In this document: piece after piece, positions 4,033 through 38,009 of the stretch
Numbering within the stretch: the first letter of the stretch is position 1
How the letters are laid out: each line of letters opens with the position of its first letter
Source: Parcubacteria group bacterium Athens0714_12
GTDB taxonomy: Bacteria; Patescibacteriota; Patescibacteriia; UBA2591; VMGY01
Direction: 5' to 3'
DNA length: 53,965 bases
Assembly (NCBI GenBank): GCA_007378955.1
Contig: VMGY01000002.1
Location: 1 to 53,965 of the forward strand
Position numbers and translations under genes: made by a program
The notes under the pieces: generated by a model
What the model was told of the DNA's origin: nothing
Database searches by the model: none
What the model saw: only the letters and a program-made list of their open reading frames with translations

Positions 4033-6771
4033 TTATTTTCCGCAACATTTCTTATATTTCTTCCTCGATCCGCACGGACAGGGGTCGTTGCGGCCGATTT
4101 TATGGCCGGATTGGTCGCGGACTTTTTCAGAAACAATGCTCTCTTCGTACCCCTGCCCCTCCATTGGTGATTTGCCATTTTTAAATTCCGTGAATTCTCC
4201 CTTTCCCTTTTCCATTGTTTTCGCGGGTGCCATTATTCTCATTCTTGCCGTTCTTTGCATCGCCGAAGGCGCGATTTCGCGCGCCAAACCAACTTTATAA
4301 ATACTGTAAACAACCTGGGAATTAATCATATTTATTAATTGGGTAAAAGATTTATACGCTTCTTCTTTATATTCAACCAAGGGGTCCCTTTGAGCATATC
4401 CGCGCAAGCCAATACCTGTCCGCAAATAATCCATCTGTTCCAAATGTTCTATCCATAAAGTGTCAATCGTCCTTAAAACAATCGCTTTTTCCAATTGGTG
4501 AACTAAATTTTCATCAGCGATTTTTTCTTCCAGCTTGTCGTAAGCCTTGGCCGCCAAAGCCGCCAAATATTCTATAATCTTGGTCCTGCTTTCCATTGCC
4601 TCGCTTTTATTGCCATTTCTTAATTCGCCCAATTTAATTCTGTCATTCTGACGTAAAGGAAAAATAGTGTTTACCACTTCATAAATTTCTTCCAGATTCC
4701 AAGTTTCTTTTGTTTCGCCGGCAGTATGGAATAAAATCACCTGTTCAATTTCATTTTCCACCATTTCTAAAATTTTCTTCCGCAAACCCCTTGACGCCGC
4801 TTTGCTTAATCCCAAAATTTCTTTCCTTTTTTTATAAATCGTCTGGCGATGTTTATTCATCACATCGTCATATTCTAAAAGATGTTTTCTTAAATCAAAA
4901 TTATAACCCTCCACTTTATTTTGGGCAGTTTCAATGGAGCGGGAAATTAATTTATTTTCAATCGGCATATCATCAGGCACGCCCAAACGCTCCATAATAT
5001 TCTTCATTCTCTCCGAGCCAAAAACGCGCATCAAATCATCCTCCATGGAAACATAAAACTGCGAAGAGCCCGGGTCTCCTTGCCTGCCCGCGCGCCCTCT
5101 TAATTGGTCGTCAATTCTTCTCGCTTCGTGCCTTTCAGTACCCAAAACATGCAAACCGCCTAATTTTTTCACTTTTTCTTGTTCCACTGAATCAGCCGGA
5201 CTGCCGCCTAAAATAATATCCACGCCCCTGCCCGCCATATTTGTCGCTACAGTCACCGCACCCAATCTTCCTGCCTGCGATAAAATTTGGGCTTCTCTTT
5301 CATGATACTTGGCGTTTAAAAGTTGGTGCGTTACGCCTTCTCTTTCCAATAATTCGCTAATTAATTCATTTTTTTCAATAGAAATCGTGCCAATTAAAAC
5401 CGGCTGGCCTTTTTGATGAAGATTTTTCACCTCTTCGGCCACGGCTTTTAATTTGCCCATTTCATTTTTATAAATCCGGTCGGATAAAACTTTTCTAACC
5501 AATGGCTTGTTGGTCGGCGCGACAATCACATCCAAATTATAAACTTTATGAAATTCTTCGGCGTTAGTGACGGCCGTGCCGGTCATCCCGGCTAATTTTT
5601 GGTACATTCTAAAATAATTTTGAAAAGTAATACTCGCCAAAGTAACGCTTTCTCTTTTTATTTGGACTCTTTCTTTGGCTTCAATCGCTTGGTGCAATCC
5701 TTCGCTATATCGCCTTCCATTCATTAAACGACCGGTAAATTCGTCTATGATGATTATTTCCCCTTCTTTGACTACATAATCTTTGTCTTTTTTAAATAAA
5801 GTTTGGGCTTTTAGCGCTTGTTCCAAATGATGAACCATCTGCAAGCCGCCTTCAGTATAAATATTTCCCATATTCAGCCATTTTTCAATTTTATTAATAC
5901 CTTCTTCAGTTAAAGTCGCGCTGCGCATTTTCTCGTCAATATTATAATCTCCTTGCCCTGAGCTTGTCGAAGGGTCATTTTCTTTTAAATGTTTTATTAA
6001 TTCAGCGAATTTATAATATAAATCAGCCGACTCTTCGGCCGGCGCGGAGATAATCAAAGGCGTTCTCGCCTCGTCAATTAAAATAGAATCCACTTCGTCA
6101 ATAATGGCGAAATTCAAAGGCCGCTGAGCCATTTCTTCCGAATCATAAACCATATTATCGCGCAAATAATCAAAGCCGAATTCATTATTAGTGCCGTATA
6201 AAATGTCTGCTTGATACGCTTCCTTGCGCAAAACTTCCCGCAATTCCTCGCCGCTGCCCAAATCAGTTTCCCGGCCATTTGCTTTAGGTTCGTATAAATA
6301 AGATTTTTCATGATTTAAAACACTTGTTTTTAATCCCAATAAATAATAAATCTTGCCCATCCATTCCACGTCTCTTCTAGCCAAATAATCATTGACTGTC
6401 ACCAAATGGCATCCTTTGCCAGTTAGCGCGTTTAAATAAAGCGGCAAAGTGGCGACTAAAGTTTTTCCTTCGCCTGTTTTCATTTCCACGATTTTTCCTT
6501 GATGCAAGGAAATGCCGCCTAATAATTGAACGTCAAAATGACGCATTTTTAGGGCTCTTTTGGACACCTCCTTGACCACGGTAAAAGCTTCGGGCAATAA
6601 ATCTTCTAAAGTTTCGCCTTTGACTAAACGTTCTTTAAATTTATCGGTTTGCCCTTTTAATTTTTCAAGCGAAAAAGACTGGAATCTTTCTTCCAGTTGG
6701 TTTATTTTATCTATTGTTGGCTGAAGTTTATTTAAAAATTTTTTATTCGGGTCGCCGAAAAAATTAAACAT
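4033..6771 (-). CDS. secA: Preprotein translocase subunit SecA
   Basis: The 912-residue ATPase motor of the Sec pathway pushes unfolded preproteins through SecYEG. Walker A is at about residues 98-104 (KTGEGKT) and the DEVD Walker B at 225-228, followed by the LIDEARTPLIIS helix. The TATNMAGRGVDI and GRAGRQGDPG motifs of nucleotide-binding fold 2 are intact. The C terminus carries the SEC-C zinc motif (DPCPCGSRKKYKKCC). Residues 266-274 (DPSTSSGQG) lie in a variable surface loop and are encoded by a dispersed repeat sequence rather than by family-conserved sequence. The gene is followed after one base by the NUDIX gene. Confidence 0.98.
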   Translation of the reverse strand: MFNFFGDPNKKFLNKLQPTIDKINQLEERFQSFSLEKLKGQTDKFKERLVKGETLEDLLPEAFTVVKEVSKRALKMRHFDVQLLGGISLHQGKIVEMKTGEGKTLVATLPLYLNALTGKGCHLVTVNDYLARRDVEWMGKIYYLLGLKTSVLNHEKSYLYEPKANGRETDLGSGEELREVLRKEAYQADILYGTNNEFGFDYLRDNMVYDSEEMAQRPLNFAIIDEVDSILIDEARTPLIISAPAEESADLYYKFAELIKHLKENDPSTSSGQGDYNIDEKMRSATLTEEGINKIEKWLNMGNIYTEGGLQMVHHLEQALKAQTLFKKDKDYVVKEGEIIIIDEFTGRLMNGRRYSEGLHQAIEAKERVQIKRESVTLASITFQNYFRMYQKLAGMTGTAVTNAEEFHKVYNLDVIVAPTNKPLVRKVLSDRIYKNEMGKLKAVAEEVKNLHQKGQPVLIGTISIEKNELISELLEREGVTHQLLNAKYHEREAQILSQAGRLGAVTVATNMAGRGVDIILGGSPADSVEQEKVKKLGGLHVLGTERHEARRIDDQLRGRAGRQGDPGSSQFYVSMEDDLMRVFGSERMKNIMERLGVPDDMPIENKLISRSIETAQNKVEGYNFDLRKHLLEYDDVMNKHRQTIYKKRKEILGLSKAASRGLRKKILEMVENEIEQVILFHTAGETKETWNLEEIYEVVNTIFPLRQNDRIKLGELRNGNKSEAMESRTKIIEYLAALAAKAYDKLEEKIADENLVHQLEKAIVLRTIDTLWIEHLEQMDYLRTGIGLRGYAQRDPLVEYKEEAYKSFTQLINMINSQVVYSIYKVGLAREIAPSAMQRTARMRIMAPAKTMEKGKGEFTEFKNGKSPMEGQGYEESIVSEKVRDQSGHKIGRNDPCPCGSRKKYKKCCGK
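5951..5976 (-). repeat. Short interspersed repeat inserted in frame in secA
   Basis: This 26-base stretch contains GAGCTTGTCGAAGGG, a sequence I recognise as a dispersed repeat in many bacterial genomes. On the minus strand it reads in frame as DPSTSSGQG. It interrupts a non-conserved SecA loop between LKEN and DYNIDEK. Confidence 0.6.
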
Positions 6772-6912
6772 ATAAATAATTAAAATAATTAATTCCTAAT
6801 TCTAAATAAATCCCAATGACCAATTTCCAAATACTAACTTAAATTCTAAATCTTAATATTAACCCTGAACTTAATTCGGGACAAAATCCAAATATTCAAA
6901 ATAGACGCAAAT

Positions 6913-7096
6913 TGTCATTGCTCGCCCTGTTAAATAATTCGCGCAGCGAATTAAAAATCTCTAAAAATTTTATTTAACAGGGCAAGGAGCAACTCGGCCT
7001 TTAGCCGCGAGCGAAGCGTGACGGGACGCAGCAATCACCTTGTCTGCCGCAACTACCACGGGATTGCCGCGCTCCTTCCAGTCGCTCACAATGACA
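6913..7096. repeat. Intergenic REP cluster in the 6772-7245 gap
   Basis: The 474-base gap between secA and the hibernation factor holds no gene. Within it are copies of the dispersed palindromic repeat whose units begin GTCATTGCGAGGAGC and end GCGGCAATCCCG, in both orientations, with the first unit interrupted by another palindrome at 6924-6983. The rest (6772-6910 and 7097-7245) is AT-rich sequence with no convincing signal. Confidence 0.8.
6924..6983. repeat. Palindrome nested inside a REP unit
   Basis: A perfect 13-bp inverted repeat (GCCCTGTTAAATA at 6924-6936, complement at 6971-6983) encloses a second inverted repeat (AATTCGC at 6936-6942 and GCGAATT at 6946-6952). It splits the sequence GTCATTGCTCG...AAGGAGC of a REP unit, so it was apparently inserted into an older repeat. 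Confidence 0.7.
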
Positions 7097-7245
7097 GCGT
7101 GAAAGAATGTCCTTGCGAGAAACCTCATTGGAAAAATCTTTTTGCTCCGCTCAGAATGGCAACCTTGATGTCAATTTAGAATTTGGGTATTGAAACTTGA
7201 TTAGACATTAGGTTAATTAAAAATTGGAATTTTAATCTTAGTGTT

Positions 7246-7659
7246 TTATTCATCCTCCCTTTCCTTATCTTTTATTTTCCTGAATAATGCCAAAGGATCT
7301 ATTGATTTCAAACTTTTAAAAAATCTCGCGCCGCGCAAATATAACGCTTTATCGCGTCCTTTATGTTTTTTAATCTGCTTAGTCAAAGATGTTTCGGCCA
7401 TATCCATCGCTGTCTGGACGTCCATTGCTCTTTCTTCGGCTCTGATTACCTTTTGTCCGGTCAATAAATCAATATTTACTTCCAATCTGACTAATTCGTC
7501 CGGGGTATGGCCAAAATTTTCACTTAAATCCACTTGAATTTGCCTGATATCATTGGCCGTATAACCGGCTTGCTTTAAAACTTTTTGCAATTTGCCAATA
7601 ATATAATCTTTGATTTCCTGCGTGAGATTGAAATTTTTCGCGTAGAATTGAACTTGCAT
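7246..7659 (-). CDS. hpf: Ribosome hibernation promoting factor, short HPF/YfiA type
   Basis: The 137-residue protein starts MQVQFYAKNFNLTQEIKDYI, the conserved opening of the HPF/RaiA family, and has the expected VEVNIDLLTGQKVIRAEE and DVQTAMDMAETSLTKQIKKHK blocks. Such proteins bind the 30S decoding region and silence ribosomes during starvation. It lacks the C-terminal dimerisation domain of long HPF; instead it ends with a basic and acidic tail (residues about 105-137). It lies 31 bases downstream of alaS on the same strand. Confidence 0.9.
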   Translation of the reverse strand: MQVQFYAKNFNLTQEIKDYIIGKLQKVLKQAGYTANDIRQIQVDLSENFGHTPDELVRLEVNIDLLTGQKVIRAEERAMDVQTAMDMAETSLTKQIKKHKGRDKALYLRGARFFKSLKSIDPLALFRKIKDKEREDE

Positions 7660-23535: not shown

Positions 23536-23562
23536 TTAGCACTCTCTTGCTTAAAGTGCTAA
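23536..23562 (-). promoter_or_regulatory. CIRCE operator
   Basis: TTAGCACTC at 23536-23544, a 9-base spacer, and AAGTGCTAA at 23554-23562: the CIRCE inverted repeat with one mismatch from the TTAGCACTC-N9-GAGTGCTAA consensus. It spans the expected transcription start of the hrcA promoter, so HrcA binding would block initiation. Confidence 0.95.
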
Positions 23563-23566
23563 TTTC

Positions 23567-23594
23567 ATTTTAGCAGAATAAAAAATCGTGTCAA
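23567..23594 (-). promoter_or_regulatory. Promoter of the hrcA operon
   Basis: On the minus strand TTGACA (23594-23589) and TAAAAT (23572-23567) are separated by 16 bases, a good housekeeping-sigma promoter, placed directly before the CIRCE element. Confidence 0.8.
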
Positions 23595-23632: not shown

Positions 23633-23663
23633 CCCTTAGCTTATTATTTTAATAAGCTAAGGG
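23633..23663 (-). terminator. Terminator of the desulfurase-kinase-regulator operon
   Basis: A perfect 13-bp stem (CCCTTAGCTTATT at 23633-23645 and complement at 23651-23663) with a 5-base loop. On the minus strand it is followed by TTTTTTAAAATTTT. It ends the operon 65 bases past the response-regulator stop. Confidence 0.88.
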
Positions 23664-23727: not shown

Positions 23728-24156
23728 CTATGGTTTCTTTACGCGATGCATGCCGATAATTTTTGCCGCTGTATCTAAAACTTCTTTCGGCGTGCAATCT
23801 CGTTTAAAAATATAAGCGGCCGCTCCCATCTTTTCGCTTTTCTTTCGGTCTTGATCCGTATCTAAATTGGTAAAAACCGCGATTGGAATATTTTTTGTCT
23901 TTGGATTCTTTTTAACCGCTTCTAAATAATCATAACCTTGTTCGGCCATTAAATTAATAGCGCCTTTTTCCTCTTTCGGAATGATAATATCAAGAAAAAC
24001 TAAATCAGGTTGTTCGAATTCCGTAATTTGCAATGCTTGCCGAATATCTTTAGTTGATAAAAAATCATAGCCATTTGTTTCAAAATAATCATGATAAATA
24101 TCAATTAAATTTTTCTCATCCTCCACAAACAGAATTCGTCCTTTATTTGATCTCAT
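23728..24156 (-). CDS. Single-domain response regulator
   Basis: A receiver domain without an output domain (142 residues from ATG 24156). The acidic pair is in ILFVEDEKN, the phosphoacceptor Asp in LVFLDIIIP (about residue 56), the switch Thr in AVFTN (about 96) and the conserved Lys in YIFKRD (about 118). An insertion of about 10 residues (KEEKGAINLM) follows the phosphorylation site. Starts at 24213 or 24180 are also possible; I prefer 24156 because AGGAAAGG stands a short way upstream. It follows the sensor kinase, its probable phosphodonor. With no DNA-binding domain it must act by protein contact. Confidence 0.88.
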   Translation of the reverse strand: MRSNKGRILFVEDEKNLIDIYHDYFETNGYDFLSTKDIRQALQITEFEQPDLVFLDIIIPKEEKGAINLMAEQGYDYLEAVKKNPKTKNIPIAVFTNLDTDQDRKKSEKMGAAAYIFKRDCTPKEVLDTAAKIIGMHRVKKP

Positions 24157-24190
24157 TATATTGGTTATTCCTTTCCTCATATATATCAAG

Positions 24191-25387
24191 TTAAACGGGA
24201 TTATTTTTTTCAAAAACCATTATTTTATCCTTTTTAACCATTTGGTCAGCCTGTTCGCCATTAAGTTGTTGATTGCGATAAATTGGCACAGTGAAGCTAA
24301 AAGTAGAACCCTTGCCCGCGCCTTTGCTGATGCATGTCATTTCGCCATTATTACCTTCAATAATTTTTTTGGAAATGTAAAGACCTAGACCGGAACCGTC
24401 GGGGTGAAGGGAACTCGCGCCTCGACCGCGGGAAAATTTTTGAAATAATATTTTTTTGTCATCTTCGGAAATGCCGGCGCCCGTGTCAGTAACATTAATT
24501 TTAAAATATTTACTATCAATTAATTCGTAACTTATGGTAACGCCGCCTTGCTCGGTATAATAAATGGCATTATCTAAAAGATTGGAGATAACATGGGTTA
24601 TTTTTTTAGAATCACACCAGACCGGCGGTATTTTAAAGGATGGTCTACTGACGGATATGTATAGCTTGCGCTGAATCGCCAATGGCATTTTTTGCTTTTC
24701 GAGAATCAGCTTTTCAACAATGGCAGTAATATCAGTTTGGATTGGCTTCATCTCCATTTTTTCGCCCTCCAATTCATAGGCGTCCCAGAAATCTTGGACT
24801 GTTTGGGCGATTCTCTTAAAGCCGGCTTTAATGGTTTCCAATGATTTGGCAGTGTCCCAAATTTTTTCGTCCATCATAGAAAAAGCCCCTAGGACCACAG
24901 AAATCGGCGTGTTGAGCTGGTGATTAGCCACTCTTAAAAAATCCGTCTTGATATTCAATAATTCTTGAAGGTATCGGCTTTTCTCTTGGATGTCTTTGGT
25001 TTGATCGCTGACTTTATCTTTAAGGTTGTCTGTTAAATCTTTCAAGGCATCCTTGGCTTTCTTTAAAGAAAAATTAGATTTGATAATTTTCTCGGTGCTA
25101 CTGTTAAAAAAATATCCGTAGACAATAATTAAAACAAATACCACGATTACCGCCAGTAGTGAGAGTCTCTTCTCAAACAAAAGAAAAAACGAGAAAGACA
25201 AAACCAATAAAAGCAAACTGACAACTTGATATTGTAAAAATAAACACTGGTGAAATTTAAATTCACAATATTGACAACGTTTATAGGGCGCGTAATTAAG
25301 ATTTTTAACTATCCAACAATTTTTATTAAGATAATTACATCCACCGATTTTTCTTTTTCCATTTTGGCTTTTTTTGCATTCCTCCAT
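24191..25387 (-). CDS. Membrane sensor histidine kinase with Cys-rich N terminus
   Basis: A 398-residue kinase. Residues 1-52 hold six cysteines (4, 17, 24, 38, 41, 48) with NCW and CQYC motifs, a likely metal- or redox-binding segment similar to the cysteine-rich two-CW regions of some kinases. Two membrane helices follow (about 54-71 and 75-94), then a coiled coil (105-145), the HisKA box with H156 (VANHQLNTPISVV), and the ATPase domain (NLLDNAIYYT, DTGAGISEDD, GSGLGLYISKKI). There is no extracellular domain, so the signal is probably cytoplasmic or in the membrane. It lies 2 bases after the DUF4395 gene. Confidence 0.92.
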   Translation of the reverse strand: MEECKKSQNGKRKIGGCNYLNKNCWIVKNLNYAPYKRCQYCEFKFHQCLFLQYQVVSLLLLVLSFSFFLLFEKRLSLLAVIVVFVLIIVYGYFFNSSTEKIIKSNFSLKKAKDALKDLTDNLKDKVSDQTKDIQEKSRYLQELLNIKTDFLRVANHQLNTPISVVLGAFSMMDEKIWDTAKSLETIKAGFKRIAQTVQDFWDAYELEGEKMEMKPIQTDITAIVEKLILEKQKMPLAIQRKLYISVSRPSFKIPPVWCDSKKITHVISNLLDNAIYYTEQGGVTISYELIDSKYFKINVTDTGAGISEDDKKILFQKFSRGRGASSLHPDGSGLGLYISKKIIEGNNGEMTCISKGAGKGSTFSFTVPIYRNQQLNGEQADQMVKKDKIMVFEKNNPV

Positions 25388-25389
25388 AT

Positions 25390-25827
25390 TTAATGATTGC
25401 GCTGATTATAAATTAGTTTTGCTAAACAATTTTTTAAAAAAATATACATTAAAGTTGCTACGCAAAAACCGACAAAACAGGCCAAAAATATCATTAAATC
25501 AACTATCAAAAGATAAACCCAAGCGAAGTCAACAAATTTATTAAAATAAATAAGAGCAAAACCAACAAGCAGAAGTAGCCCCGTCGCGGCAGCCACGAAA
25601 TTTAATTCCCCCAATTCTTTTGGTGTCGGATTCGACTTCTTTTTAAAGATTAAAACATGAAATTGATACGGTATATTCAGCTTTAGTGAAAAGGCCCCCA
25701 AAATTGTTAAAACAGCGACCGCCAAAACCAACCATTGATTATGAATTAAAACCGCAATCAATAGCAATACCCCATAAGTCGCCCGTGAAAATCGTAAAGA
25801 ATTGTTATAGATTAAACATTGTTGCAT
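25390..25827 (-). CDS. DUF4395-like integral membrane protein
   Basis: A 145-residue protein with four predicted membrane helices (about 15-32, 34-50, 75-98, 105-132). The SLRFSRATYGVLLL opening and GFCVATLMY near the end fit the DUF4395 family, in which the end usually reads FCxGCxxY; here the second Cys is replaced. DUF4395 proteins are often found with thiol-redox or sulfurtransferase proteins, and here the neighbours are a cysteine-desulfurase-like enzyme (30 bases upstream) and a Cys-rich kinase (2 bases downstream). A role in sulfur or thiol transport or sensing is inference. Confidence 0.75.
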   Translation of the reverse strand: MQQCLIYNNSLRFSRATYGVLLLIAVLIHNQWLVLAVAVLTILGAFSLKLNIPYQFHVLIFKKKSNPTPKELGELNFVAAATGLLLLVGFALIYFNKFVDFAWVYLLIVDLMIFLACFVGFCVATLMYIFLKNCLAKLIYNQRNH

Positions 25828-25857
25828 ATATGGATAATTTTAAATTAAAAAAATAAA

Positions 25858-27210
25858 TTAAATACATTTTTTGACAGCTCGGCACACCTTTTTTACATCT
25901 TCAATATTGTTGTAGACGCAAAAACTCAACCGACAACTGGCGGGGGGGTTTAGTCCGTAATAATGATGCGCCAACGTCGCGCAATGACAGCCAGCCCTTG
26001 ATTCTACCCCTAATTTACTTAACTCCTCGGCAATTTTAAATGGACTTTTGTCTTTACAAGTAAAAGCAACTAAAGATGTTCTATTGACAGGATTTTTTGG
26101 GCCAAAAATATTTAATGACGGCATCTCTCCTAATAATCCCAATGCTTCTCTAATCAGAGTTTGCTCATGAGACTTTATATTTTCCATCGCTTTTTTTATG
26201 TCGGACGCTTCCAGTTGTTTATTGGCCAGAAAATATTTGCGTTTTCTCGGATTGATAGCAAAATCAATTAATAATCTGATGGCCTGGGCGGAAAGAATCG
26301 TCCCTAAAATATTTGGGGTACCGGCCGTAAACTTCCAAGGAAGTGAATTATAACTAACTTTTTCTTGACTAACCATTCCTTCGGCAATCATGTCGCCGCC
26401 ATAAAGAAACGGTCTCATTTTTTCAAGCAATCCTTCTTTGGCATACAAAGCCCCAACCCCAAAAGGCGCCAGCATTTTATGGAAAGACCAAACAAAGAAA
26501 TCCACGCCCAGCTCGTTAACATTAACAAAAGTATTGGGAACAACTTGAGCGCCATCAATTAAAAGATATGACCTTGTTTCTCCATTGGGCTGGATATAGC
26601 CGCTGGAATCGGCGATGGCTTTTATTTTTTTAATCGGATTGATTGTTCCTAAAAAATTTGACGCCCCGGTGCAACAAACCAATTTAGTTCTTTGGTCTAC
26701 CAAAGATTTTAGGTGATTCAGATCAAGAACGCCGGTCTCTTTATCAAATTTGGCAATTCGGCACTCTGTATTAACGCCGAATTTCGGCAATATTTCTTTG
26801 CATAATCCGTACCAAGGAACATAGTTTGAATTATGCTCCATGAAGGTTGTGACCACATTATCTCCATTTTTGAATTCAGTCATTAAAGAGTACATGACCG
26901 AATTAATTGCTTCTGTGGCGTTTCGGTATAAAACAATATTTTTTCGCGAAGTGGCGCCGATAAATTGCGCAATCGTGTCATAAGATGATTCAAACGCTTC
27001 GGTAGTTAATAGCGAAGAGCGGGACTGGCCCCGATGGACATTATCGTACTGAACGACAAGCTTTTTCAGCAATTCTAATAATTGGACAGGGACTTGCGTG
27101 CTCGCCGCGTTATTGGAAACTATTCTTCCGGCTTTTATTGCCGGAAAAAATTTTCTTATTTTTTTGGTGTCTATCATAAGTTGATTTTTGACCAGATTAA
27201 TAGTTTTCAT
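25858..27210 (-). CDS. Aminotransferase class V, SufS/Csd-like cysteine desulfurase
   Basis: A 450-residue PLP enzyme. The cofactor lysine is K245 in WSFHKMLAPFG; LLIDGAQVVP (about 216) gives the PLP-ring Asp and Gln; EHNSNYVPW (about 125) replaces the usual EHHAN. The catalytic-loop equivalent is RAGCHCATLAHHYYG (C410 matching the SufS Cys). Such enzymes take sulfur from cysteine to form a persulfide. The additional Cys at 408 and the clustered C426, C431, C443 and C449 are unusual. It is first in an operon with a DUF4395 protein, a kinase and a regulator rather than with SufB/C/D/U, so its role may differ from general Fe-S assembly. Confidence 0.88.
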   Translation of the reverse strand: MKTINLVKNQLMIDTKKIRKFFPAIKAGRIVSNNAASTQVPVQLLELLKKLVVQYDNVHRGQSRSSLLTTEAFESSYDTIAQFIGATSRKNIVLYRNATEAINSVMYSLMTEFKNGDNVVTTFMEHNSNYVPWYGLCKEILPKFGVNTECRIAKFDKETGVLDLNHLKSLVDQRTKLVCCTGASNFLGTINPIKKIKAIADSSGYIQPNGETRSYLLIDGAQVVPNTFVNVNELGVDFFVWSFHKMLAPFGVGALYAKEGLLEKMRPFLYGGDMIAEGMVSQEKVSYNSLPWKFTAGTPNILGTILSAQAIRLLIDFAINPRKRKYFLANKQLEASDIKKAMENIKSHEQTLIREALGLLGEMPSLNIFGPKNPVNRTSLVAFTCKDKSPFKIAEELSKLGVESRAGCHCATLAHHYYGLNPPASCRLSFCVYNNIEDVKKVCRAVKKCI

Positions 27211-27236
27211 TTTCCCGTGTGATGTATTTATTGTAT

Positions 27237-27265
27237 ATAATACATTCTTTTATTGTTTTTTACAA
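27237..27265 (-). promoter_or_regulatory. Probable promoter of the cysteine-desulfurase operon
   Basis: On the minus strand TTGTAA (27265-27260), a 17-base spacer and TATTAT (27242-27237), about 27 bases before the start codon. A TGTATT...AATACA inverted repeat overlaps the -10 region and could be an operator. Confidence 0.6.
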
Positions 27266-37727: not shown

Positions 37728-37735
37728 ATTTAGTC

Positions 37736-37830
37736 ATAAAATTAAAAATCTGCATTACCGCAGATTTAAAAGACTTTCGCCTAAATAGGATATTAAGCCT
37801 TTCAGCGCCTATTTTCTACGGCAGATATTG
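37736..37830 (-). promoter_or_regulatory. Probable L10 ribosomal-protein leader with attenuator
   Basis: On the minus strand, 37830-37768 contains ATAGGCGCTGAAAGGCTTAATATCC...TTTAGGCG, similar in layout to the L10 leader RNA (a stem closed by ATAGG/CCTAT, an inner hairpin, a TTAAT bulge and a following AGGCG). It leads to a terminator-type hairpin (AAATCTGC at 37767-37760, GCAGATTT at 37753-37746) with a TTTTTAATTTT tail. The leader 5' end has ATCTGC, which could pair with the terminator 3' arm as an antiterminator. L10 or L10(L12)4 binding would then control read-through. Confidence 0.55.
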
Positions 37831-37832
37831 AT

Positions 37833-38009
37833 TGAGATGGTTGCAAAACTGCTTCGGCTGCAATTTGCTATTTTCAGCCAATGCTTCGTCAAGCTGCGTA
37901 AAATGATTTTCGCCGTAATTCTATTACGGTTCAAATCATTTTACTTGCTTTCCTCGCCTTGGCTGAAACTATCTAAATTTCGCGACAAAACAGTTTTGCA
38001 ACCATCTCA
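37833..38009. repeat. MITE-like palindromic element, family A, complete copy
   Basis: A 177-bp element with perfect terminal inverted repeats of 18 bp (TGAGATGGTTGCAAAACT and complement) and an imperfectly palindromic body centred on ACGGCG/ATTCTATTACGG. The reverse complement matches 2681-2805. It lies between the beta-helix protein gene and the rplJ leader. Confidence 0.88.

What the first reader, a model, noticed from the sequence alone, without database searches (positions are those of the whole stretch)
23728..27265. Compact operon: cysteine-desulfurase-like enzyme, DUF4395, Cys-rich kinase, receiver-only regulator
Seen: four minus-strand genes with gaps of 30 and 2 bases and then about 34, one promoter at 27237-27265 and one terminator at 23633-23663, so a closed unit. 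The enzyme has all PLP motifs plus extra cysteines (C408, C426, C431, C443, C449). The kinase lacks an extracellular sensor but has six Cys in its first 50 residues. Family knowledge: DUF4395 proteins associate with thiol and sulfurtransferase proteins. Inference: a sulfur- or persulfide-sensing signalling system in which desulfurase product is monitored through the membrane protein and kinase. I know no described system with this order.
Basis: partly seen in the sequence, partly recalled or inferred. Interest (0 to 1): 0.75.

Follow-up and report, generated by a model that had tools for sequence, protein, structure and literature searches.

The report
Sulfur-linked signalling cassette in tiny bacteria
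A small gene cassette found across many ultra-small, uncultured bacteria joins a sulfur-releasing enzyme to a membrane protein and a cysteine-bearing signalling kinase, and it looks like an undescribed way for cells to sense their sulfur state.

Summary
The four genes exist as described, and their order is conserved. In 381 genomes of the same class, the DUF4395 protein and the kinase's N-terminal Cys/2-TM module occur in exactly the same 10 genomes; the enzyme occurs in those 10 plus two from one other family. Four of the six kinase cysteines (C24, C38, C41, C48) are invariant in all 31 aligned modules; C4 and C17 are not.

A related order of the phylum carries the same DUF4395-kinase pair behind a different desulfurase set: SufS plus SufE, often with cysteine synthase. 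SufE is absent from all 13 genomes searched that carry the variant enzyme. The two enzyme types interleave on the sensor tree, so a cysteine desulfurase has repeatedly filled the same slot. DUF4395 and the Cys module co-evolve (Mantel r 0.86), whereas the kinase core and the enzyme are exchangeable. Nine loci have the pair without any kinase.

Best reading: DUF4395 plus the Cys/2-TM module is a membrane sensor of sulfur or persulfide status, fed or calibrated by the cassette desulfurase and signalling through a swappable kinase. The sulfur link is well supported. The ligand (persulfide, Fe-S or Zn) and direction of sulfur flow are inferred. No description was found in the library searched.

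The parts
25858..27210 (-). SufS-like (type II) PLP-dependent cysteine desulfurase variant; homologues start at the ATG at 27177; catalytic Cys410 codon at 25981-25983 in the motif RAGCHCA
   Evidence: Aminotran_5 288 bits; 320.7 bits to TIGR01979 SufS, below its cut-off of 475.1; 68-85% identity in 17 loci; active-site residues invariant
25390..25827 (-). DUF4395 four-TM membrane protein, cassette subfamily with Cys4 and Cys122 (CVAxxMY in place of CxGCxxY)
   Evidence: PF14340 38 bits > 24.5; C4 in 29/30 and C122 in 30/30 copies; AlphaFold mean pLDDT 84.9, helical, no significant PDB match
24191..25387 (-). Histidine kinase: N-terminal Cys domain, two TM helices with a very short loop, coiled coil, HisKA (H156) and HATPase_c
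   Evidence: Pfam; alignment A1; hydropathy peaks at residues 62 and 84
25010..25387 (-). Cys/2-TM sensor module (residues 1-126), the part of the kinase that is conserved and co-evolves with DUF4395
   Evidence: Alignment A5; in the class it occurs only in the 10 DUF4395 genomes; Mantel r 0.86 with DUF4395
25244..25318 (-). Invariant four-Cys motif, residues 24-48: CW-x11-RC-x2-C-x6-C
   Evidence: C24, C38, C41 and C48 invariant in all loci examined
23728..24156 (-). Receiver-only response regulator (acidic pair E12/D13, D56, K118 conserved)
   Evidence: PF00072 56 bits, no output domain; alignment A4
23633..23663 (-). Intrinsic terminator closing the unit (14-pair stem and T run)
27237..27265 (-). 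Promoter-like site TTGTAA-17-TATTAT, not distinguishable from chance

Best explanation
The cassette is a sulfur-linked, membrane-associated two-component system. Its sensing unit is the pair DUF4395 plus the Cys/2-TM module at the front of the kinase. I propose that the two proteins form a membrane complex and that the four invariant cytoplasmic cysteines (CW-x11-RC-x2-C-x6-C) form a metal, Fe-S or persulfide-reactive site whose state follows cellular sulfane sulfur or cysteine supply. The cassette cysteine desulfurase (here a SufS-like enzyme working without SufE; elsewhere SufS+SufE, sometimes with CysK) generates or delivers that sulfur. The change is passed through the TM hairpin and coiled coil to an exchangeable kinase core and, where present, to a lone receiver. 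SHOWN: gene order, co-occurrence, invariant cysteines, repeated swapping of desulfurase type at the same locus, co-evolution of DUF4395 with the module, exchange of the kinase core. INFERRED: physical complex, nature of the Cys site, signal identity, direction of sulfur flow, output.
For: Twelve of the 17 close enzyme relatives have DUF4395 and the Cys-kinase directly downstream; a thirteenth is a whole cassette split by a contig end. In 381 class genomes the DUF4395 and module sets are the same 10 genomes, inside the 12 with the enzyme. In another order, 17 of 196 genomes carry the module. Where the contig shows upstream genes, kinase-type cassettes there read SufS-SufE-CysK-DUF4395-kinase (L093, L095), SufS-CysK-SufE-DUF4395-kinase (L099), SufS-SufE-DUF4395-kinase-receiver (L097, L098), or SufE then DUF4395-kinase (L094), L016/L096 having the variant enzyme. 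CysK also sits inside one variant cassette, L009. SufE is absent from all 13 variant-enzyme genomes and present in all three SufS-type genomes searched. On the DUF4395+module tree, the variant enzyme forming one group is rejected (p-AU 0.00017), as is SufS/SufE forming one group (p 0.029). DUF4395 and module distances correlate (r 0.86 over 30 loci; 0.81 over 13), whereas the enzyme's do not correlate with DUF4395 (r 0.05). L020 against the window: DUF4395 79%, module 78%, kinase core 37%; L093 against L094: 79, 77 and 39%. DUF4395 elsewhere: next to a SufS-like enzyme (Methylobacterium), a thioredoxin-domain protein (Thiothrix), and in a thioredoxin-MBL-TauE-DUF4395-rhodanese run (Microbacterium), and thioredoxin reductase (L065, L067).
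Against: Nine kinase-less loci keep DUF4395 and the four cysteines without an adjacent desulfurase, so the site need not depend on that enzyme. Four genomes carry the variant enzyme without the module. No ligand was identified: the module model is low-confidence (pLDDT 66) and matches no solved structure by sequence or fold. The receiver is missing near several kinases, so the output is unknown. There are no expression or biochemical data.
Confidence: 0.6

Rival explanations
1. Dedicated maturation: the desulfurase supplies sulfur to build an Fe-S cluster on the kinase's four cysteines, and the kinase then senses oxygen, NO or redox as NreB does. Sulfur is the building material, not the signal.
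For: Four invariant Cys with a CxxC next to invariant Trp, Pro and Arg look like a folded metal site. A desulfurase or its partner SufE is encoded upstream of the kinase form in every kinase-type locus where the contig shows that side. Fe-S kinases with four N-terminal Cys exist (NreB, PMC4601167).
Against: No scaffold, SufBCD or iron gene is in the cassette. SufB/D is absent from 12 of the 16 genomes tested, G000 included. The host has its own NifS-like, NifU-like and MnmA set (L073). It leaves CysK and DUF4395 unexplained. Kinase-less loci keep the Cys without a desulfurase nearby.
Confidence: 0.25
2. The cysteines bind structural zinc, and the system senses a membrane signal through DUF4395 like other intramembrane-sensing kinases. 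The desulfurase is a passenger in a loosely assembled operon.
For: Two TM helices with a very short loop plus an adjacent accessory membrane protein match the intramembrane-sensing layout (PMC7492735). The enzyme's history is independent of the sensor's (r 0.05).
Against: A passenger would not be replaced repeatedly by another cysteine desulfurase with its own partner SufE at the same position. DUF4395 occurs with thiol and sulfurtransferase genes elsewhere.
Confidence: 0.12
3. Chance or hitch-hiking proximity: four unrelated genes that happen to be neighbours.
For: None beyond the fact that flanking genes outside the cassette differ between genomes.
Against: Same order in 16 variant cassettes from several candidate phyla, with different flanking genes, and exact co-occurrence in 10 of 381 genomes.
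Confidence: 0.01

Closest known systems
YrkD/NreBC sulfur-sensing cluster of Bacillus licheniformis (PMC9918477)
   Same: A histidine kinase and response regulator encoded among sulfur-handling genes, shown to respond to sulfide
   Different: That kinase has a PAS domain and its regulator binds DNA; the cluster has sulfide:quinone reductase and persulfide oxygenase, no desulfurase and no reported DUF4395 (the word is absent from the paper). Here there is no PAS, a Cys/2-TM module and a receiver with no DNA-binding domain
NreB-type Fe-S kinase (Staphylococcus, PMC4601167)
   Same: Four conserved cysteines in the N-terminal part of a histidine kinase
   Different: NreB is soluble and its cysteines sit in a PAS domain; here they precede a TM hairpin and there is no PAS hit. 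Cluster binding is untested
LiaFSR / VraTSR intramembrane-sensing systems (PMC7492735)
   Same: Kinase without an extracytoplasmic sensor, with an accessory membrane protein encoded next to it
   Different: Unrelated accessory family (DUF4395), a cytoplasmic Cys domain ahead of the TM hairpin, a linked desulfurase, and a receiver-only regulator
SufS-SufE (type II cysteine desulfurase and its sulfur acceptor)
   Same: Enzyme active site is conserved; the SufS-SufE pair itself occupies the slot in sister cassettes
   Different: The variant is below the SufS model cut-off, has RAGCHCA in place of R(T/A)GHHC, an extra region at about residues 318-341 without counterpart in SufS, and no SufE in the genome
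DUF4395 (PF14340) proteins of sulfur-detoxification operons
   Same: Family membership; four-TM membrane proteins near thioredoxin and rhodanese genes
   Different: The cassette subfamily lost the second Cys of the C-terminal CxGC motif and carries a conserved N-terminal Cys4

Membership tests
SufS-type cysteine desulfurase (TIGR01979) | Score above the curated cut-off (475.1) | tested here: not met
   320.7 bits; the cassette SufS of L093, L098 and L099 score 574-577
SufS-type cysteine desulfurase (TIGR01979) | Catalytic residues: PLP Lys in xHK, Asp and Gln of DGAQ, His of MEH, catalytic Cys, Arg of RxS | tested here: met
   Aligned to solved SufS structures; invariant in 17 variants
SufS-type cysteine desulfurase (TIGR01979) | Dedicated SufE partner | tested here: not met
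   No SufE in 13 genomes with the variant enzyme; a SufU-like partner role for the NifU-like protein beside the NifS-like enzyme was not tested
SufS-type cysteine desulfurase (TIGR01979) | Cysteine desulfurase activity | not testable with these tools
   Needs an assay
SUF Fe-S assembly operon | SufB/SufC/SufD scaffold genes with the desulfurase | tested here: not met
   None in the cassette; SUFBD absent from G000 and from 11 of the other 15 genomes
DUF4395 (PF14340) | Above the gathering score | tested here: met
   38 bits against 24.5
DUF4395 (PF14340) | C-terminal CxGC-like motif seen in the other DUF4395 copies of the phylum | tested here: not met
   First Cys kept in 30/30, second replaced; most non-cassette copies have CxGC
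Intramembrane-sensing histidine kinase | Two TM helices, very short loop, no extracytoplasmic domain | tested here: met
Intramembrane-sensing histidine kinase | Adjacent accessory membrane protein | tested here: met
   DUF4395 directly upstream in 31 of 32 loci, the other cut by the contig end
NreB-type Fe-S sensor kinase | Cysteines within a PAS domain | tested here: not met
   No PAS hit at E <= 1
NreB-type Fe-S sensor kinase | Bound [4Fe-4S] cluster | not testable with these tools
   Needs spectroscopy
Two-component system | Intact H, N and G boxes; receiver with acidic pocket, Asp and Lys | tested here: met

The most novel reading that the evidence does not exclude
DUF4395 plus the Cys/2-TM module is a new class of membrane persulfide sensor or relay: the desulfurase hands persulfide to DUF4395 (Cys4/Cys122) or directly to the four-Cys domain, which reports the sulfur load through whatever output is fused or recruited (kinase, or a coiled-coil scaffold). 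It would be a modular sulfur sense organ of ultra-small bacteria.
Probability: 0.35. Interest if true: 0.8.

Novelty: new variant of a known kind. Interest (0 to 1): 0.62.

Why it matters
Candidate-phyla bacteria have very small genomes, yet several groups keep a dedicated sulfur enzyme wired to a signalling kinase. If confirmed, this gives a role to DUF4395, a widespread membrane family of unknown function, and defines a new four-cysteine sensor module. It would also show how sulfur supply is monitored in cells that probably depend on neighbours for cysteine. The repeated natural swap of two desulfurase types behind one sensor is a ready-made comparison of SufE-dependent and SufE-free sulfur delivery.

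Tried and rejected
Mobile element or viral origin: no module in viral contigs, phage or plasmid records. Solved-structure relatives of DUF4395 or the module: none by sequence or fold. Module model too weak to judge Cys geometry, and coordinates are not exposed. Riboswitch or leader upstream of the cassette: none, only a tRNA-Glu. Shared operator upstream of the enzyme gene: none evident by eye in 17 upstream regions. Other conserved neighbours: no further family recurs across cassettes apart from CysK, SufS/SufE and the receiver. Housekeeping Fe-S desulfurase role: rejected, because G000 has a separate NifS-like desulfurase, NifU-like scaffold and MnmA. Literature on DUF4395 with kinases or on a desulfurase-kinase operon: nothing relevant in the held library. 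The weak PHD-finger hit (E 0.006) on the Cys motif is below Pfam's cut-off and not relied on.
Full report
Observation. The window's four minus-strand genes are as described: a class-V PLP enzyme (25858-27210), a DUF4395 protein (25390-25827), a histidine kinase (24191-25387) and a receiver-only regulator (23728-24156). Pfam supports all four. A strong terminator closes the unit, and a separate CIRCE-controlled hrcA unit follows; the promoter match is no better than shuffles give. The kinase has two hydrophobic helices separated by about five residues and no extracytoplasmic domain.

Conservation. A scan of bacterial and archaeal genomes gave 17 close relatives of the enzyme (68-85% identity), nearly all from records labelled as Candidate Phyla Radiation lineages; one is labelled Deltaproteobacteria and one only 'uncultured bacterium'. 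Twelve have DUF4395 and the Cys-kinase directly downstream, most with a receiver. One more, cut by a contig end, has the rest of the cassette on another contig of the same genome. Two further variant cassettes came from the class search (L110, L111), which makes 16 with the window. Flanking genes differ, so the cassette is a self-contained unit. In 381 genomes of the class, DUF4395 close relatives and the kinase's Cys module occur in the same 10 genomes, and the enzyme in these plus two of one other family. Four genomes have the enzyme without the module.

The sensor unit. The N-terminal 126 residues of the kinase form a module with the motif CW-x11-RC-x2-C-x6-C, a short TM hairpin and a conserved juxtamembrane stretch. 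C24, C38, C41 and C48 are invariant in all 31 modules aligned by motif, and in 30/30 of the DUF4395-paired set; C4 and C17 are not conserved. The motif search presupposes the four cysteines, but its inputs were found independently by profile or by position, and none failed it. DUF4395 keeps C4 (29/30) and C122 (30/30) but lacks the second Cys of the CxGC motif seen in most other DUF4395 proteins of the phylum.

Exchangeable parts. DUF4395 and module distances correlate strongly (Mantel r 0.858, 0 of 2000 permutations). The kinase core does not follow them: L020 and the window share 79% in DUF4395, 78% in the module and 37% in the core. The variant enzyme's distances do not correlate with DUF4395 (r 0.05, p 0.34).

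The decisive comparison came from another order of the phylum, where 17 of 196 genomes carry the module. Kinase-type loci there mostly have DUF4395-kinase behind SufS+SufE, with or without cysteine synthase (L093, L095, L097, L098, L099; L094 shows SufE at the contig edge). The SufS reading frames of L095 and L097 are split, by assembly error or real frameshift. L016, in the same family (f268) as three SufS/SufE genomes, has the variant enzyme instead. SufE is absent from all 13 genomes with the variant and present in the three SufS-type genomes searched. On the DUF4395+module tree the two enzyme types are interleaved; grouping all variants is rejected (p-AU 0.00017), and grouping all SufS/SufE loci is rejected more weakly (p 0.029), while the kinase-bearing forms lie on one side of a single branch (99/92). 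A cysteine desulfurase therefore seems to be required at this place, and which one matters less. This is my main reason for accepting the sulfur link.

Kinase-less forms. Nine loci (L101-L109) have DUF4395 followed by the module ending in a coiled coil, with no kinase and no adjacent desulfurase; one has thioredoxin reductase directly upstream (L107) and one a PAS protein downstream that shares the coiled-coil motif (L106). DUF4395 plus the module is thus the core, and output is variable. These loci also weaken the claim that the adjacent desulfurase product is the only signal.

The enzyme. Active-site residues match solved SufS structures and are invariant in 17 variants, but the score is below the SufS model's cut-off. 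Type II desulfurases are reported to depend on specific acceptor proteins (PMC8300815), so the lack of SufE raises the question of which protein accepts the persulfide; DUF4395 or the module are candidates (inference). The host genome has a separate NifS-like desulfurase, NifU-like scaffold and MnmA operon (L073; the names NifU-like and MnmA are my reading of the sequences), and no SufB/D, so the cassette enzyme is not the only sulfur source.

DUF4395 elsewhere. In five annotated plasmid records it lies next to a SufS-like enzyme in Methylobacterium, a thioredoxin-domain protein in Thiothrix, and in a thioredoxin-MBL-TauE-DUF4395-rhodanese run in Microbacterium; two other contexts are uninformative. 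In the phylum it neighbours thioredoxin reductase (L065, L067) and CsoR-family repressors (L059, L061).

Mechanism. I infer that DUF4395 and the module form a membrane sensor whose four-Cys site reports sulfur state to an interchangeable kinase. Whether the site carries persulfide, Fe-S or zinc is open; the structure prediction is too weak and nothing in the PDB matches. Known relatives by layout are NreB (four Cys, Fe-S, PAS), LiaFSR (short-loop kinase plus membrane partner) and the sulfide-responsive NreBC of B. licheniformis (PMC4601167, PMC7492735, PMC9918477); none combines these parts. The held library has no paper describing this arrangement, but it lacks most subscription journals and holds no bioRxiv preprints.

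Verdict. Real, conserved and, as far as I could search, undescribed. The sulfur link is well supported; the signalling mechanism is a good but untested hypothesis.

Noticed in passing
window 23536-23594 (-): CIRCE-like inverted repeat TTAGCACT..AGTGCTAA with an 11/12 promoter in front of hrcA-grpE-dnaK: an ordinary heat-shock operon.
   Followed up: partly
window 37734-37839 (-): Ribosomal L10 leader, just above the Rfam threshold.
   Followed up: no
L006 (G918, labelled Deltaproteobacteria), 6230-7543: The variant enzyme at 83% identity in a 3.8-Mb genome outside the candidate phyla, without DUF4395 or kinase, overlapping a small Cys-containing ORF; transfer or binning error.
   Followed up: partly
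L106 5773-7166: A PAS-domain protein follows the kinase-less module and shares its C-terminal coiled-coil motif (GRELKMIELKK), suggesting pairing of the two.
   Followed up: no
L101, L102, L104 downstream of the kinase-less module: Recurrent tandem pair of OMP-decarboxylase/HUMPS-family proteins of about 220 aa next to or near the module (Pfam for one copy).
   Followed up: no
L059 1134-1977 and L061 1149-1983: CsoR-family repressor directly upstream of canonical DUF4395 in two genomes; only one of the usual metal or persulfide Cys seems kept.
   Followed up: partly
L126 4076-5985 (Methylobacterium aquaticum plasmid): DUF4395 followed by another SufS-like enzyme (29% identity to the window's), beside copper and heavy-metal genes: an independent DUF4395-desulfurase pairing.
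   Followed up: partly
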